From positions 1-51,135 of the forward strand of contig CALMRE010000154.1 in assembly GCA_937871295.1 (NCBI GenBank): a stretch of DNA of 51,135 nt, read 5' to 3'. This DNA comes from an uncultured bacterium (GTDB taxonomy: Bacteria > UBP6 > UBA1177 > JAKLFG01). A model generated the notes under the pieces. That model saw only the letters and a list, made by a program, of their open reading frames with translations, had not been told where the DNA came from and made no database searches. Of this stretch, positions 20,015 to 51,135 are shown piece after piece. Made by a program: the position numbers and the translations under genes. Every line of letters begins with the position of its first letter. The stretch's first letter is position 1.

Positions 20015-20503
20015 TTAACGGTCATTGGCTATACGCACCTCAAGGTCCTCATCAACCAATGAACGAAGGGTCACTCCTACATCCATGCAACGAATTAACT
20101 TGAGAAGTGCTTGTGCCTTGATCTCTTTCTCAAAGACTTCAGCATCGTAAACCCTACCTCCATGTTCTTCTTTTGCCTTTTTAATCAATTCGCCAAAAGG
20201 TATCTCTTTAGATACAGCTACAACTTTTAGCGTTGTCATTCTGTTTTTTCCAAAAGGTGGCATGCCATAATCAAACATATTGAACTTAAACCCTATAATA
20301 TAATAGTCGTTAGGAACACCGACCAGCTTCCTGACAACTTTCTCAAACACCAACATATCGCTTGGATGACCATGAGTTTCAATTGAGATCAGCCCCGAAT
20401 AGATTTCCTTGCCATCACCCACCGACAGAACTGGGCTTGTCCCCTTTTTCCCTCGGCTGGGGACACCCCGTCCAATTCTGCGATTCGTTCTTACTTGCAA
20501 CAT
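20015..20503 (-). CDS. Hypothetical protein of the accessory operon
   Basis: 162 residues from ATG 20503, placed behind GAGGTGG. Not recognised. The N-terminus is basic (QVRTNRRIGRGVPSRGKKG). The rest looks like a folded alpha/beta domain (DMLVFEKVVRKLVGVPNDYYIIGFKFNMFDYG, ending DEDLEVRIANDR). There is no signal peptide or membrane segment, although both neighbours are exported. Composition is visibly A+T-richer than the housekeeping genes. The end overlaps the following lipoprotein start region. Frame and length look real but the start is uncertain, because the first 30 residues have odd composition. Confidence 0.6.
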   Translation of the reverse strand: MLQVRTNRRIGRGVPSRGKKGTSPVLSVGDGKEIYSGLISIETHGHPSDMLVFEKVVRKLVGVPNDYYIIGFKFNMFDYGMPPFGKNRMTTLKVVAVSKEIPFGELIKKAKEEHGGRVYDAEVFEKEIKAQALLKLIRCMDVGVTLRSLVDEDLEVRIANDR

Positions 20504-20545
20504 TGGCCACCTCAACTATTTTTTGCGCCACGGTCTTCCGGCATT

Positions 20546-20740
20546 TTATCTTTTCTTGCGATCCGGCTTCCCATGACTTACAAACAACACAAGAAATCCA
20601 AATATCGCGCCACCGATAGAAATAACAAGGCCAGCGAGTACAACCAATGTGTCTCTGTGCAACCAATTATATTTAAAAACCAAGAATGGAAAGATTATCC
20701 CTGTCACCACCATTAAAAGCGCCAAACCCCGCTCTTTCAT
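20546..20740 (-). CDS. Small two-helix membrane protein
   Basis: 64 residues with a strong GGAGG ribosome site 7 nt upstream. Two membrane segments (LALLMVVTGIIFPFLVF and LVVLAGLVISIGGAIFGFLVLFV) are joined by KYNWLHRDT, and the tail is basic (HGKPDRKKR). It starts 37 nt after the beta-propeller gene and so belongs to the accessory operon. Function unknown; it could be a small scaffold or superinfection-exclusion-like peptide, but nothing in the sequence decides this. Confidence 0.6.
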   Translation of the reverse strand: MKERGLALLMVVTGIIFPFLVFKYNWLHRDTLVVLAGLVISIGGAIFGFLVLFVSHGKPDRKKR

Positions 20741-20777
20741 TTATCTGCCTCCGTACTCACATGAACTTTTCTCGCCA

Positions 20778-22496
20778 TCATTCTGCGCTGAAGACGCTCA
20801 AGAAAATATCCGTGCTCCCCGGGTCGGGGTTCTCGTCAATTGCCCCTCCTGCCGAACCCGTGATGAAGATCTTTCCGTTATCATCTATGGCGATGGCTCT
20901 TCCCCAATCCTCCCCTTCACTACTTCCCCACTGTTGGGTCCATAATTTCGTTCCATCAGAAGCCCACTTGGTAAGAAACACATCACCCAATCCTATTTCA
21001 GCATTGCCATCTAACGGGCCATTTGCCGCTCCAGTCACGAATATGAATCCATCTTTGTCTACGGTCACTGCGGAGCCAATATCTGACTGATCTGTTCCCC
21101 ACTGTTTAGTCCATTCCCTCGTACCATCGGCATTCCACCTAGTAAGGAAAATATCACTGTTCCCGGCGCTGCTGTTCCCGTCAAGTCCCCCAGCGGTTGT
21201 TCCGGTTACATAGATGTTTCCGTTGTCGTCAACCGCGACACCCCATGCACTATCCACATTGTTTGTACCCCACTGCCGATGCCATACTTCGGTTCCCGCG
21301 CTGTCTGTTTTTATGAGGAACAGATCATCGTAGCCCGCATTCGTGTATCCGGAAAACGAACCGTTGGTCGAGCCGACTAGATAAAGATTCCCGCTTGTGT
21401 CTAAAGCCATTGCGTTGGTTATTTCCGAATCAGCGGTTCCGTACTGCTTTACCCATTGCTCGGAACTACTATTTAGATGCTTTGCCAAAAATACATCGTA
21501 GTTGCCAATATAAGTGCCTCCGTCAATGGAGGCTCCGACATCGCCGGAGGTGAAAATCTCATCGCTGGTGTTTATGACAATAGGGTATCCCTCTTCGTAC
21601 ATAGCACTTGTTGAGGTTGTGCCCAACAATTTGCTCCACGCCTTAGTGCCGTTAGCATTCCATCTAGTGATGAAGATGTCATCCCCGCCTATCTGCGTGT
21701 TGCCGTCGAAATTGCCCCGTGCAGTGCCGGTCACATAGATATTGCCACTGCTATCAACCGCCGCGCCGTGGCTCCACGCTTCTACGCCGGAACCCCACTG
21801 TTTCGTCCATTCCTCGACAAGATCCGCATTCCATTTTGTCAGAAAAATTGGGCCTGTTGTCGTGCTGCTATCAATGGTTCCTGAAGCCGTGCCCGCCACA
21901 AAGATATTGCCGTTAGAGTCTAGGACAACCGCAGTGCCGTAGTATAATCCAGTCGTTCTTCCCCACTGTTTTGTCACTCGGCGCACGGTCCAATGACCAC
22001 CGACGCATTCCGAAACCACACCCGTCTCGGTCTTCCAGTCACCGGTCACACATTCGTTCGTGTCAACATCCGGCACACCTTCGACTTCGCTCAGGTCAGG
22101 CACATCATCCTCAACTTCCGCCTCAACCGCATCCACATCCGGCTCCTGCTCCACCGCATCGGTGTCCGGCAGGATTTCGGCATCGGCGCTGTCGGATACA
22201 TCAGTGGAATCAGTATCTTCGACTTCGCTATCTTCGGCTGACAAGTCCTCATCCACCAGAATTTCGTCGGCTATCTCGTCGACATCAACGGAGCCGTCGG
22301 CATCAAGCGCCCGCAACTCCTCGACCAACGCCCCAATATCCACCCTCGCCGGATGATCGCACCCCACCACCACAAAGAACGCCGCCACTACCATTATATA
22401 TATGTAGCCGCCAACCTTCCCTTCCCTTGTCAAAGGGAGGGATAAAGGGTAGGATTTAACATTTATCACGGGAAGTATTTCGCTATCATTTCTCAT
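20778..22496 (-). CDS. SBBP-type seven-repeat beta-propeller lipoprotein
   Basis: 572 residues from ATG 22496, which has GGGGG just upstream and a promoter 30 nt away. The N-region encodes a translated palindromic repeat (YPLSLPLTREGKVGG), then a hydrophobic core and lipobox (FFVVVGC). An Asp/Glu-rich linker of about 100 residues follows. Seven repeats of about 52 residues come next, with the pattern WGT...A.A.D..GNIYVTGT..G..DGN and LTKWNADGTREWTKQ. Seven units fit one complete seven-bladed propeller. SBBP proteins are exported; their ligands are mostly unknown. It heads an operon with the 2-TM protein, the unknown protein and the Asp-rich lipoprotein. Confidence 0.85.
   Translation of the reverse strand: MRNDSEILPVINVKSYPLSLPLTREGKVGGYIYIMVVAAFFVVVGCDHPARVDIGALVEELRALDADGSVDVDEIADEILVDEDLSAEDSEVEDTDSTDVSDSADAEILPDTDAVEQEPDVDAVEAEVEDDVPDLSEVEGVPDVDTNECVTGDWKTETGVVSECVGGHWTVRRVTKQWGRTTGLYYGTAVVLDSNGNIFVAGTASGTIDSSTTTGPIFLTKWNADLVEEWTKQWGSGVEAWSHGAAVDSSGNIYVTGTARGNFDGNTQIGGDDIFITRWNANGTKAWSKLLGTTSTSAMYEEGYPIVINTSDEIFTSGDVGASIDGGTYIGNYDVFLAKHLNSSSEQWVKQYGTADSEITNAMALDTSGNLYLVGSTNGSFSGYTNAGYDDLFLIKTDSAGTEVWHRQWGTNNVDSAWGVAVDDNGNIYVTGTTAGGLDGNSSAGNSDIFLTRWNADGTREWTKQWGTDQSDIGSAVTVDKDGFIFVTGAANGPLDGNAEIGLGDVFLTKWASDGTKLWTQQWGSSEGEDWGRAIAIDDNGKIFITGSAGGAIDENPDPGSTDIFLSVFSAE
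22412..22460. repeat. Dispersed palindromic (REP-like) repeat inside the propeller gene
   Basis: CTTCCCTT-GTCA-AAGGGAGG forms an 8-bp stem (one G-T pair) with flanks rich in CCCTTT/AAAGGG. This matches the well-known CCCTTTGACAAAGGG type of short dispersed palindromes. It lies in frame in the 5' end of the propeller gene. Confidence 0.65.
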
Positions 22497-22526
22497 CGCC
22501 GCCCCCAATAACAGAAAGAACGGTTG

Positions 22527-34549: not shown

Positions 34550-35662
34550 TCAGAAACTCGCATTCAATATCGGCATGAAGAATACTTTATTGTTCTTCAC
34601 GATGTTGACGAGTCCTATCTGGAAGCCGTAGAGGTCGCCGGTATAGTTCACGAGGCCGATCTGCGCGCCATAGACGGTGCGCGCGACATTGACCACGCCG
34701 GTCTGCGTCCCTTTCATGGTCTGCGCCATGTTGAGGATGCCGAACTGGCCGATGCCGGCGAACTTCGTCGCAGTATTCCAGACGCCCACCTGCATACCGC
34801 CACGAAAACCTTCACGGGCTTGACCCAGTTCCAACACTTCGCCGGTGTCTGGACGAGTATAGGTTTCATTCGGCAATTCTTCTTCTTCCGTCATTACGAG
34901 CGAATCGCCAAGACTACTGTATCCGGTACTGTTGATGAATCCCGCCTGTATGAAACCACGAAATGAACCGTTGAAGGAGAATATCGCGCCGATTTGAAGA
35001 AGACCCTTGAACATATAGTTGAAATTCATAGCACCAATCTGAACCCCGCCACGGAAACCGTCCCATTTTCTTCTGCCGCCCCAAAAGGATTTATCGGGAT
35101 GCCATGCTCTTCTGAGGGAAATGAATCCTGCAGTATTCAAAGGAGCGAACTGCACAAGAGACCACACATAATCAGCCCGCGATTTAATGGTGTCAATCTT
35201 AAGTAATGTATAGGAATGCCCTACATAGGAATAATTCCCGAAATGTAACAAAGCAAATTCTACTTGTGCGTAATCCACTAAAGACACTCGAACTAGGGCA
35301 CCAGTCAAGGAATCGGCATTTAACATGGTTATCTGTGCCAAAAGAAAAGATTTCCAATGCGATCCAACCATTGAAAGTTGCGTCAGTGCAATTTGCCGAT
35401 GACTTGAAGAATTGTACAGAGATCCCATGCTGACAAGGCCAGTAAATTCACCGCTGCTGCAATACCCTATCATTGTGAATTTCTTTCCACGATACCCATT
35501 ACAGGTCAAGTAAGGATCTGCCGTGTCTTCAATCCTTTTTCGGTATTTTTCCCAAGCTATCTCTTCCAGAGAGTCAGCACCAAAACATAGTTCAGAAAAA
35601 AGAAGGCTCACCAGAAGCACGAAGTTCAGAAGTCTTTTCGAGAAAATCTTACGAAGCCCCAA
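34550..35662 (-). CDS. Secreted surface-repeat protein (LA_2272-like GxQIGxxN repeats)
   Basis: 370 residues from a TTG start at 35662 with AGGGG about 8 nt upstream; an in-frame stop just upstream rules out a longer form. The signal peptide is LLNFVLLVSLLFSELCFG. The C-terminal two thirds repeat a unit of about 18 residues of the type FRGGVQIGAMNF, GMQVGVWNTATK, GTQTGVVNVARTVYGAQIGLVNYTG and GFQIGLVNI, as in LA_2272-type surface-repeat proteins. A beta-helix or barrel-like surface fold is likely. The function is unknown. It lies 35 nt upstream of yhcG on the same strand and is similarly A+T-rich. Confidence 0.72.
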   Translation of the reverse strand: MGLRKIFSKRLLNFVLLVSLLFSELCFGADSLEEIAWEKYRKRIEDTADPYLTCNGYRGKKFTMIGYCSSGEFTGLVSMGSLYNSSSHRQIALTQLSMVGSHWKSFLLAQITMLNADSLTGALVRVSLVDYAQVEFALLHFGNYSYVGHSYTLLKIDTIKSRADYVWSLVQFAPLNTAGFISLRRAWHPDKSFWGGRRKWDGFRGGVQIGAMNFNYMFKGLLQIGAIFSFNGSFRGFIQAGFINSTGYSSLGDSLVMTEEEELPNETYTRPDTGEVLELGQAREGFRGGMQVGVWNTATKFAGIGQFGILNMAQTMKGTQTGVVNVARTVYGAQIGLVNYTGDLYGFQIGLVNIVKNNKVFFMPILNASF

Positions 35663-48036: not shown

Positions 48037-48927
48037 CTACCGAAGCGTGGTCATAAAAGCGGCGACCGTGTAGAATCCGGCGAAAAAGTATGCCATGCCG
48101 AACTTGGCGCGTGAAATGAGCAGTTCGGCGAGAAAGGCGGACGGCAGAAAAACCAGCCCGACCAGCACCATATCGACGATAGAAAGTGTGGCGTAGGAGC
48201 AGTAGGCTGTCCCGAAGATGCCAATGAGTATACCGGCCACCGTGAAGATCGCGACTCGCATAGCATTAGAGCGGCGCAAGAAGGCCATTATCTCAGGGAT
48301 GAAGAGTATTGCGCAAAGGATGAGCGACACCAGCAGATAAATGAGGGCAAGCAGTTTCTGGTTGGTGAATGCCGTCGGCAGAAGGACGAACGCCTTCGAG
48401 CGAGGAGCCGCACCGAAGAGGTGCAATCCCAGTGCGATATAGGAGCCGTAGAAACCGATCAGGATCGCCAAGAGGGTCCGGTAGAGACTTCTTGTGAGAG
48501 CAACGGATGCAGTGATGGTTATGATGAGGAGAGGAGCGAGGGTGAAGAACTGGTGGTGGTTGCGCGGGTGGAAGTAGTTGAGCGTGAGGAGGTGAAACCA
48601 GAAATCCTCATCGACCGGCAGGTAGGCAAGATCGAGAGGAGAACCGGTTAGCCACGCATGGAGCACTGGGATGAGAACCAGTGGAGCGCCCCAACCGATG
48701 AGGTGCAGTCGTTCAACCGGAACCTTCAGCACATAGCGGGCGGTTGCCGCGAACCAGAGGAAGACCGAGGTGAACCAGAAGAAGTGATGAATGAAGAGGT
48801 GATAGTCAAGACGATGGGAAAAGACCGCGAGTTCGAGGTAGACGCGGAGAAGAATTGTCGTTGCAATGTTGAAAACAAACAGTGTTTTTATGAAGTTCCC
48901 CTTCGACAGATTGCATCCAACGCCCAT
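48037..48927 (-). CDS. Polytopic membrane protein of unknown function
   Basis: 296 residues with about eight membrane helices (LFVFNIATTILLRVYLELAVF, LLALIYLLVSLILCAILFI, MVLVGLVFLPSAFLAELLI). Two His clusters lie at helix ends: RLDYHLFIHHFFWF and LNYFHPRNHHQFFTL. I do not recognise the family. A+T-richer than the core genes, it starts 12 nt after the WG-repeat lipoprotein and may belong to the RHS module. Confidence 0.78.
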   Translation of the reverse strand: MGVGCNLSKGNFIKTLFVFNIATTILLRVYLELAVFSHRLDYHLFIHHFFWFTSVFLWFAATARYVLKVPVERLHLIGWGAPLVLIPVLHAWLTGSPLDLAYLPVDEDFWFHLLTLNYFHPRNHHQFFTLAPLLIITITASVALTRSLYRTLLAILIGFYGSYIALGLHLFGAAPRSKAFVLLPTAFTNQKLLALIYLLVSLILCAILFIPEIMAFLRRSNAMRVAIFTVAGILIGIFGTAYCSYATLSIVDMVLVGLVFLPSAFLAELLISRAKFGMAYFFAGFYTVAAFMTTLR

Positions 48928-48939
48928 TTCTGCTCTATT

Positions 48940-49980
48940 TTAGGGCAAACACTCCTTCTTTTTAAGAAAAATTGACACTATGGCGCGACCATTACGAAAT
49001 GATGTCGCCTTATAAAATCTCGGTTTAATTATCCATTTCCCCGTATGATCAATGTACCCCGACGAAAAAAGATCTTGATCCAGCGCAACCGCAGCAAGTC
49101 CTTCACTAAAGTCAGATGCGAACATAAATCTGGGGGAGATAGCCCATCTTCCTTGAGTGTCAAGAAAACCCTCCTTAGAAGAATAGTCTTTCTTTACCAA
49201 AGCAAGCCCCTCGGAGAAATCATTGGCGAAAAGAAACGAGGGAGGTATCACAAACTCGTCTTTCTCATTAACATAGCCCCACAATTTCGCGTCCTCCAGA
49301 CCATCATTTCTTCTCAGAATGTTTTTTATCACGATGCTTTTCCTTCTCAATCCATCGCGAAGGGGTGGGGTTGGGTACGGGGGACGATCTATAAATTCTC
49401 CTTGTGCATTTACAAATATCTCTTTGCTGTCACTATCGTAATAAGTGAATCGAACTACCCCCTCTTGATGTTCATATGCGGTAATAGATCGAGCATTCTC
49501 GGAAATCGGAAGTTTCAATTGTGAGCCTATCTGTCCATCTGAAAAAAAGTAGAAGAGGTCGTCTTTTTTTACAATAAACTTTCCCTTTGAAAGATATGAA
49601 ATACCCTCATACTCCGGCGGAATCACCAAATTGAAATCTTCATCCCAGCAACCCCAGTTCCCATTTTGGGCTCTAAAGGCAAAGTATTTAGACAGTGTTC
49701 CCTTGCCTAATATCTTTTTTTCTTTTTTCAGCAAATTCCCATTACTGTCAAAAAGGAAGCTATAAGAGTCTCCCTTATCTTCCTTTTCTGCAATAAAGTT
49801 CTTCCAGTCATTTGTAGGGTGAATGGTATAGTACTCCGGTTGAAGAACCCAATCCCCACTTTTATTTATGACACCATACATCTCCTCAGCATTTTCGCCA
49901 ATAACAAGTTTCTCAGCAGTGGCACAAGAAACGAGCAAAAAAAGAGCAGTAGAAAGGAAAATCACTATTCGCTCGCGCAT
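48940..49980 (-). CDS. WG-repeat lipoprotein, putative immunity protein of the RHS toxin
   Basis: 346 residues from ATG 49980, behind GAGG; the track start at 50067 lies within the RHS gene. Signal peptide IVIFLSTALFLLVSC with a lipobox. The mature protein has about seven WG-type repeats, for example MYGVINKSGDWVLQPEYYTI, GYVNEKDEFVIPPSFLFANDFSEGLALVKKD, GFLDTQGRWAISPRFMFASDFSEGLAAV and GYIDHTGKWIIKPRF. WG repeats form elongated binding scaffolds. The gene follows the RHS tip by 7 nt, the place where polymorphic-toxin immunity genes usually lie. The immunity role is inference. Confidence 0.8.
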   Translation of the reverse strand: MRERIVIFLSTALFLLVSCATAEKLVIGENAEEMYGVINKSGDWVLQPEYYTIHPTNDWKNFIAEKEDKGDSYSFLFDSNGNLLKKEKKILGKGTLSKYFAFRAQNGNWGCWDEDFNLVIPPEYEGISYLSKGKFIVKKDDLFYFFSDGQIGSQLKLPISENARSITAYEHQEGVVRFTYYDSDSKEIFVNAQGEFIDRPPYPTPPLRDGLRRKSIVIKNILRRNDGLEDAKLWGYVNEKDEFVIPPSFLFANDFSEGLALVKKDYSSKEGFLDTQGRWAISPRFMFASDFSEGLAAVALDQDLFSSGYIDHTGKWIIKPRFYKATSFRNGRAIVSIFLKKKECLP

Positions 49981-49987
49981 GTCCGCC

Positions 49988-51135
49988 TCACCATTCATAT
50001 GGATCGATGTTTCCGGGGTTGAAATCGCCGGAAACCCATTGCCATGCTGTGTTAGGATAATAGGCACCGCCGTTTTCTGATTCGGGACCTAACTTTAACT
50101 CTCCCGTAAGTCGGTTGTAATATCGGCTTTTAGAAAAGAGCAAAAAAAGTACCGGATCCTTGAGTTTTCTTTCTCTCGGGTACACATACACTACGCGAGG
50201 AATGGAAATCCAGTCAGAGGGAGTCGGATCTTTCAAAACGACCCTTTCTTCTTTTCCGGGTCGTTCCAAAATCATGCGGCGTATCCTGTTCATTTGAAAG
50301 TATTGGTAGGCGGTATTCCCTTCTTCAGGGTCAGCTGGCCGATTTGTTAGTTGCTTTCCCTTTTTACCCGTAACGGAGCTGGTTCTGGTCGTACATACCG
50401 AGCCTTCGCATTGTGCATTTTCCATTTTAACCTTTTCCCCGTTCACATATATTATAAATGCTTCTCCTGTTTTGTTATCAACAACAACTTCCCCAATAAC
50501 TTTGCCATCATTATCAACCAGTTCATATGACTTGATATCGTGTTCTCCTTGAGTTCTGGCGAAAATATCACGCCCCTCTTCTTTGCGTCCACCTTGTTTG
50601 GTCTCTTCTAGGCCCGAAAGGTCTTGATATGCCTGCGTTCTTTTCTTTTTCCATTCCTCAGCGTTACCCTCATCTCCTGTCGCTTTCGCCATTTTTACAT
50701 CGTCTATGGTTGGCACCGTCGCTGTGGCGGCATCTAAAAGCGAAACACCGATTGAAGCGGCCAGAGCGGATACTGAAGCTGGCAATCCATATGTTAATGC
50801 CATTACACCCATAACAACTGTTGCCCCTTGTTCGCCTGCCGATTTCTTTTCTGCTACTCCCAAGGCAAGGTCGCGAGTTACGGAAAAGGGGACACTCAAT
50901 GGCCCCAAAGCCTTGTTTAAACAAGCGTCAAACAATTGCCATCCAAGCGCCATAGAGGTGCTTCCAGCGGCATCGGCGTATGTTTCATCTCTCAACCCCG
51001 TGAGATCACTATGCTCAATCACCATCCCCGCAACATAGGAAAAACCATTACCGAGGTTATTGGCATCACCCCAGATACCGATCGGGTCCTGATTGATGAA
51101 CCGCTTCATGCCGATGTGGTAATAGCGGTTCCGCA
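49988..51135 (-). CDS. RHS-family protein, C-terminal end with variable tip (5' beyond window)
   Basis: 382 residues visible to the right edge. In the truncated part the frame reads RNRYYHIGMKRFINQDPIG, the RHS-core signature RYY...RFIxxDPIG. After GNGFSYVAG the core boundary DLTGL (normally DPLGL) appears. About 340 residues beyond it form the variable C-terminal tip. The tip holds Ala/Gly-rich hydrophobic stretches (VSALAASIGVSLLDAATA) that could be a translocation helix region. A terminal soluble domain follows (SDWISIPRVVYVYPRERKLKDPVLFLLFSKSRYYNRLTGELKLG). I do not recognise the toxin fold. The DNA is much A+T-richer than the core genome. Confidence 0.85.
   Translation of the reverse strand, partial: RNRYYHIGMKRFINQDPIGIWGDANNLGNGFSYVAGMVIEHSDLTGLRDETYADAAGSTSMALGWQLFDACLNKALGPLSVPFSVTRDLALGVAEKKSAGEQGATVVMGVMALTYGLPASVSALAASIGVSLLDAATATVPTIDDVKMAKATGDEGNAEEWKKKRTQAYQDLSGLEETKQGGRKEEGRDIFARTQGEHDIKSYELVDNDGKVIGEVVVDNKTGEAFIIYVNGEKVKMENAQCEGSVCTTRTSSVTGKKGKQLTNRPADPEEGNTAYQYFQMNRIRRMILERPGKEERVVLKDPTPSDWISIPRVVYVYPRERKLKDPVLFLLFSKSRYYNRLTGELKLGPESENGGAYYPNTAWQWVSGDFNPGNIDPYEW

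What the first reader, a model, noticed from the sequence alone, without database searches (positions are those of the whole stretch)
48940..51135. Polymorphic-toxin-like module: RHS tip followed by a WG-repeat lipoprotein
The visible RHS core ends at DLTGL and is followed by a roughly 340-residue tip that I cannot match to a known toxin fold. Seven bases later a lipoprotein with about seven WG repeats begins. RHS tips are usually paired with an immunity gene immediately downstream. A lipid-anchored, repeat-scaffold immunity protein acting in the periplasm or at the outer membrane would be unusual. The whole segment is A+T-rich compared with the rest of the window, a common sign of horizontally moved toxin tips.
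Basis: partly seen in the sequence, partly recalled or inferred. Interest (0 to 1): 0.68.

Follow-up and report, generated by a model that had tools for sequence, protein, structure and literature searches.

The report
RHS toxin tip with WG-repeat immunity partner
A surface-displayed bacterial weapon protein ends in an exchangeable toxin segment and is followed by a lipid-anchored repeat protein that most likely protects the producer; related bacteria carry dozens of such swappable toxin-plus-protector cassettes, all closed by the same unusual tail domain after the toxin.

Summary
An RHS core ending DLTGL is followed by a 334-residue tip and, 7 bases later, by a lipoprotein with WG repeats (5 detected, not 7), in A+T-rich DNA. 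The RHS gene is cut off by the contig end.

The toxin-plus-immunity reading is well supported by comparative genomics. In genomes of the same candidate phylum (UBP6), RHS genes with the same core form tandem arrays, each followed by an exported or membrane protein (WG, ankyrin or TPR repeats, or TM proteins). Partner type tracks toxin type (14 of 15 similar partners have similar toxins; 0 of 5000 shuffles). WG genes lie just downstream of such tails 15 times in 45, against about 0.02 expected.

The toxin is not at the extreme C-terminus: it sits between the core and a conserved ~115-residue C-terminal domain (CTD), found here only in UBP6. Truncated CTDs lie between downstream immunity-like genes and keep their 3' ends (30 of 35), as expected if successive cassettes displaced older toxins. 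The window's own toxin segment has no homologue found; it looks helical with one hydrophobic hairpin. Toxicity and neutralisation are inferred, not shown.

The parts
50993..51133 (-). end of the RHS core, with the DLTGL motif at 50993-51007 (P0001 residues 1-47); gene cut by the contig end
   Evidence: TIGR03696 match; 34 of 37 core residues identical to relatives
50564..50992 (-). variable segment = predicted toxin (residues 48 to ~190); no homologue found; mostly helical with one hydrophobic hairpin at about 50723-50830
   Evidence: no match in genome contigs, plasmids, relatives or PDB; no profile match to relatives' toxins; low-confidence AlphaFold model, helices 53-193; hydropathy
50336..50563 (-). 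linker, predicted beta strands, with a CxxxxC motif (CEGSVC); relatives' linkers also carry Cys-Gly motifs
   Evidence: alignments; best-modelled stretch, residues 201-220, pLDDT 73-77
49991..50335 (-). constant C-terminal domain (CTD) ending NIDPYEW, a divergent member
   Evidence: HMM built without the window hits it over positions 14-138 of 139, 17.7 bits, i-E 9.9e-6; alignment; also hit, where the window was itself part of the model
48940..49980 (-). WG-repeat lipoprotein, predicted immunity protein; lipobox at 49924-49935; repeats at 48973-49059, 49081-49170, 49186-49281, 49555-49656, 49801-49878
   Evidence: PF14903 E 1.7e-43; repeat coordinates; translation; positional association in relatives
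48037..48927 (-). polytopic membrane protein gene 12 bases after the WG gene; the same gene (81% DNA identity) follows the other cassette on contig C186; probably the 3' flank, possibly a third gene of the module
   Evidence: family present in 23 of 28 UBP6 genomes, mostly away from RHS genes

Best explanation
This is the 3' end of a gene for an exported RHS surface protein, followed by its cognate immunity gene. The tail has three parts: a conserved RHS core, an exchangeable toxin of about 145 residues, and a linker plus a constant C-terminal domain (CTD). The RHS filament would display the tip on the cell surface (inferred). The tip would be released at the conserved DxTGL border (inferred from other RHS proteins) and would act in the envelope of a neighbouring cell (inferred from the exported or membrane-bound partners). 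The WG-repeat lipoprotein would sit anchored on the periplasmic or surface side of the producer and block sibling toxin by binding it (inferred). New cassettes enter between the shared core and a shared 3' flank: the CTD and its remnants in the rumen relatives, probably the downstream membrane-protein gene in this genome. They displace the old toxin and leave the old immunity gene (inferred from the remnants). For this particular toxin, attack on the membrane through its hydrophobic helical hairpin is the best guess, at about 40%.
For: Same core with unrelated middles and the same CTD in 36 intact frames. Partner directly downstream and co-varying with toxin type: 14 of 15 partner pairs with >=50% identity have similar toxins, 0 of 5000 shuffles reach this. 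15 of 45 WG genes within 600 bp after a CTD, expected 0.018. CTD remnants between successive immunity-like genes: 30 of 35 keep the 3' end, 2 of 35 the 5' end. In this genome two cassettes share the core and the membrane-protein gene and differ between them: WG partner in the window, TPR partner on C186. 32 of 36 partners have an N-terminal hydrophobic segment, background 45 of 89. RHS N-termini of relatives start with a signal peptide-like stretch and EGF/LRR motifs. In relatives 8 of 9 WG-paired toxins carry HExxH, against 2 of 25 others. Precedents: RHS toxin/immunity pairs (PMC3150448), effector displacement leaving immunity arrays (PMC5361080).
Against: No activity data. The window's toxin has no detectable relative, no known motif and no confident fold (pLDDT 50, pTM 0.24; no PDB match with E <= 0.001). 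It lacks the HExxH motif of most WG-paired toxins. 30 of 45 WG genes have no CTD nearby, so WG proteins may have a wider role. The genomes are related, so pair counts are not independent and co-inheritance may partly reflect linkage. The window's CTD match is weak when the window is left out of the model (17.7 bits).
Confidence: 0.78

Rival explanations
1. The CTD, not the middle segment, is the active toxin or effector, and the middle is a carrier or pre-toxin region. The downstream proteins would then neutralise one common domain.
For: The CTD is the last domain, the usual place for an RHS toxin, and it is strongly conserved.
Against: Partner families change with the middle segment, while the CTD is shared. 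Middles include HExxH sequences and marginal peptidase-like matches. CTD remnants persist as short fragments, as expected of leftovers.
Confidence: 0.1
2. The WG lipoprotein is not an immunity protein but a surface anchor or display partner for the RHS protein, as proposed for the MafA lipoprotein next to MafB toxins (PMC3482391).
For: Lipid-anchored repeat scaffold; the C186 cassette and relatives also have exported repeat proteins next to RHS genes.
Against: An anchor for a constant RHS body should be constant, but the partner type varies with the toxin. Partner-like genes pile up in series downstream of RHS genes, separated by CTD remnants, as immunity arrays do.
Confidence: 0.1
3. The tip and lipoprotein are ordinary neighbours brought in together on an A+T-rich island, without functional pairing.
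For: The whole segment is A+T-rich, and 30 of 45 WG genes are not near a CTD.
Against: 15 WG genes after a CTD against 0.018 expected, and tight spacing of 7-10 bases repeated across genomes.
Confidence: 0.05

Closest known systems
RHS polymorphic toxin / immunity systems (PMC3150448; Zhang 2012 PMC3482391)
   Same: constant RHS core ending in a DPxGL-like border, variable toxin, immunity gene immediately downstream, exchange of tips, orphan modules
   Different: a constant domain follows the toxin instead of the toxin being last; Sec-type N-terminus with EGF/LRR motifs in relatives; repeat-protein partners that are exported
Imm-ank, Imm-LRR, Imm-HEAT and Imm65 immunity families (PMC3482391)
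   Same: repeat scaffolds serve as immunity proteins (Imm-ank); Imm65 is a lipoprotein, described there as the only one in that collection
   Different: WG repeats are not named as immunity in the passages read, and no paper found by search links WG repeats to immunity; here WG, ankyrin and TPR partners are exported
Immunity gene arrays formed by effector displacement in Vibrio cholerae T6SS (PMC5361080)
   Same: new effector-immunity modules displace the old effector and leave immunity genes in a row
   Different: here each row is marked by remnants of one shared C-terminal domain, which could act as a common 3' homology arm
T9SS substrates with a C-terminal sorting domain (described in PMC7073777)
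   Same: a constant domain at the extreme C-terminus of an exported protein
   Different: no Pfam or NCBIfam sorting-domain match in the tip; hits of the CTD in UBP6 are RHS tails or short fragments; no link to T9SS shown

Membership tests
polymorphic toxin system, RHS type | constant body or core joined to unrelated toxin segments | tested here: met
   same core, at least 10 toxin groups in relatives, two unrelated tips in this genome
polymorphic toxin system, RHS type | cognate gene immediately downstream, type tracking the toxin | tested here: met
polymorphic toxin system, RHS type | toxin domain at the extreme C-terminus (the usual arrangement) | tested here: not met
   a constant ~115-residue CTD follows the toxin
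polymorphic toxin system, RHS type | toxicity and neutralisation | not testable with these tools
   needs expression and rescue assays
T6SS-type RHS effector | N-terminal PAAR domain | tested here: inconclusive
   relatives start with a signal peptide-like stretch and EGF/LRR motifs, no PAAR; the window gene's own N-terminus is missing from the contig
WG_beta_rep proteins (PF14903) | WG repeats above the curated cut-off | tested here: met
   146.7 bits against a cut-off of 25.6
bacterial lipoprotein | signal sequence ending in a lipobox cysteine | tested here: met
   MRERIVIFLSTALFLLVSC; judged by motif and hydropathy only
zinc metallopeptidase toxins (Tox-MPTase type, PMC3482391) | HExxH motif in the toxin segment | tested here: not met
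   absent in the window's tip; present in 10 of 34 relatives' toxins counted
T9SS substrate | Por_Secre_tail-type C-terminal domain | tested here: not met
   no Pfam or NCBIfam match to such a domain in the tip

The most novel reading that the evidence does not exclude
UBP6 bacteria use a distinct class of RHS weapon in which the toxin is an internal cassette held between a constant core and a constant post-toxin domain. That domain works both in delivery or release and as the shared 3' handle by which new toxin-immunity cassettes are captured, leaving a row of remnants and immunity genes. WG-repeat proteins are a new family of envelope immunity proteins, mostly against metallopeptidase-like toxins.
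Probability: 0.35. Interest if true: 0.75.

Novelty: new variant of a known kind. Interest (0 to 1): 0.58.

Why it matters
If right, a common bacterial repeat (WG) gains a role as an immunity scaffold, and about a dozen unstudied toxin families with envelope-located partners become recognisable by position. The constant post-toxin domain gives a sequence handle for finding such cassettes, and its remnants give a readable record of the order in which toxins were replaced. The work concerns an uncultured phylum found in rumen samples, where the means of competition are little known.

Tried and rejected
Tip search in genome contigs, plasmids, 41 genomes and PDB: no relative or no significant match. 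Pfam and NCBIfam on the tip: only the RHS core end; the NusG_II match is below its threshold. PADLOC: none. AlphaFold of the window tip (pLDDT 50) and of a relative with HExxH (pLDDT 44) were poor and Foldseek gave no significant match, so no fold is claimed. Profile comparison of the window's toxin with relatives' toxins gave at most 14% probability, in the linker. Pfam hits for relatives' toxins (Peptidase_M15_4, PPPDE, DUF5675) are marginal and used only as hints. The idea that the downstream membrane protein is RHS-specific was dropped: it is present in 23 of 28 genomes, mostly away from RHS genes. Papers: no article linking WG repeats to immunity was found.

Full report
Observation. The window is one whole contig (G000:C154, 51,135 bp). 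Its last 141 bases encode, on the minus strand, the end of an RHS core (TIGR03696) up to DLTGL. A 334-residue tip follows. After 7 bases comes a 346-residue protein with a lipobox (LVS|C) and five detectable WG repeats. G+C falls from 59% to 41-47%.

A second cassette in the same genome. Contig C186 begins with the same ~55 bases in the same frame, then diverges within the tip. It carries a different tip, then a TPR protein, then a membrane-protein gene 81% identical in DNA to the one behind the window's WG gene. RHS repeat sequence that may belong to either copy lies on contig C245, which ends inside the YD repeats. Two cassettes between the same core and the same 3' neighbour are what cassette exchange would leave.

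Relatives. Genomes of the same order match contigs of candidate phylum UBP6 (UBA1177, UBA1209 and rumen MAGs; contig lengths agree). There, RHS genes with the core RFINQDPIGIWGDANNLGNGFAYVAGMVIEASDPTGL stand in tandem arrays, each followed, usually within about 10 bases, by a partner gene. Partners are WG, ankyrin or TPR proteins or TM proteins. The tails have a variable middle, a linker and a conserved C-terminal domain (CTD) of about 115 residues. An HMM built from 34 tails without the window hits the window tip over positions 14-138 of 139 (17.7 bits, i-E 9.9e-6). The same domain was found 91 times in 28 UBP6 genomes and in none of 165 genomes outside the phylum. One CTD contig is filed under a Methanobrevibacter MAG, most likely contamination.

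Which part is the toxin. The middle segments fall into at least ten unrelated groups. Partner types change with the middle: of 15 partner pairs with at least 50% identity, 14 have similar middles, and none of 5000 shuffles reaches this. The CTD is shared by all. So the middle is most likely the toxin and the CTD is not. Several middles carry HExxH; others have marginal matches to M15 or PPPDE peptidases.

WG proteins as immunity. 45 WG genes were found in the phylum; 15 have a CTD ending within 600 bp upstream on the same strand, against 0.018 expected under uniform placement. Among intact cassettes of relatives, 8 of 9 WG-paired toxins have HExxH against 2 of 25 others (Fisher p 2e-5; the toxins form few families, so they are not independent). 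32 of 36 partners have an N-terminal hydrophobic segment, background 45 of 89. Only 13 of 42 WG proteins have a lipobox-like motif, so export rather than lipid anchoring is the shared feature.

Displacement arrays. Behind the intact pairs come further immunity-like genes, many preceded by a truncated CTD. Of 35 CTDs without a core in frame, 30 keep the 3' end and 2 the 5' end. Displacement of an old toxin by a new cassette, keeping the old immunity gene, explains this; a comparable process is described for Vibrio T6SS loci (PMC5361080), and orphan RHS tips are known (PMC3150448, PMC3967940). That the CTD also serves as homology arm is an inference.

Delivery. RHS N-termini of relatives begin with a signal peptide-like stretch and EGF-like and LRR motifs, not PAAR. 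Display on the surface and release at DxTGL are inferred from other RHS proteins.

The window's own toxin. Residues 48-190 have no homologue found. Hydropathy shows one strong hydrophobic stretch and the low-confidence model is helical. Membrane attack is the best guess, at about 40%. It lacks HExxH, so the WG partner here faces another toxin type, or the toxin has diverged beyond recognition.

What is shown and what is inferred. Shown: anatomy, repeats, positional association, partner-toxin co-variation, remnant pattern, phylum restriction within the collections searched. Inferred: toxicity, immunity, release, envelope target, role of the CTD.

Noticed in passing
34550-35662, minus strand: 370-aa exported protein in A+T-rich DNA, 62% identical to the gene directly downstream of another RHS gene of this genome (contig C76, L026:3128-4246); possibly an orphan RHS partner.
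   Followed up: partly
48037-48927 and L025:1843-2706: Polytopic membrane protein family present in 23 of 28 UBP6 genomes, with three copies in this genome; two lie behind RHS cassettes.
   Followed up: partly
L088:2294-16637: Long stretch in one relative with two intact RHS tails and eight or so CTD remnants interleaved with small exported proteins, an apparent immunity array.
   Followed up: partly
L027:949-3403 (contig C219): RHS gene without CTD whose tip has a hydrophobic stretch then a short polar C-terminus, with an overlapping 200-aa frame downstream; another tip type of this genome.
   Followed up: no
L156: UBP6-type RHS tail on a contig filed under a Methanobrevibacter MAG, probably a binning error.
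   Followed up: no
20015-22508: Another A+T-rich stretch of the window (G+C 0.44-0.52).
   Followed up: no
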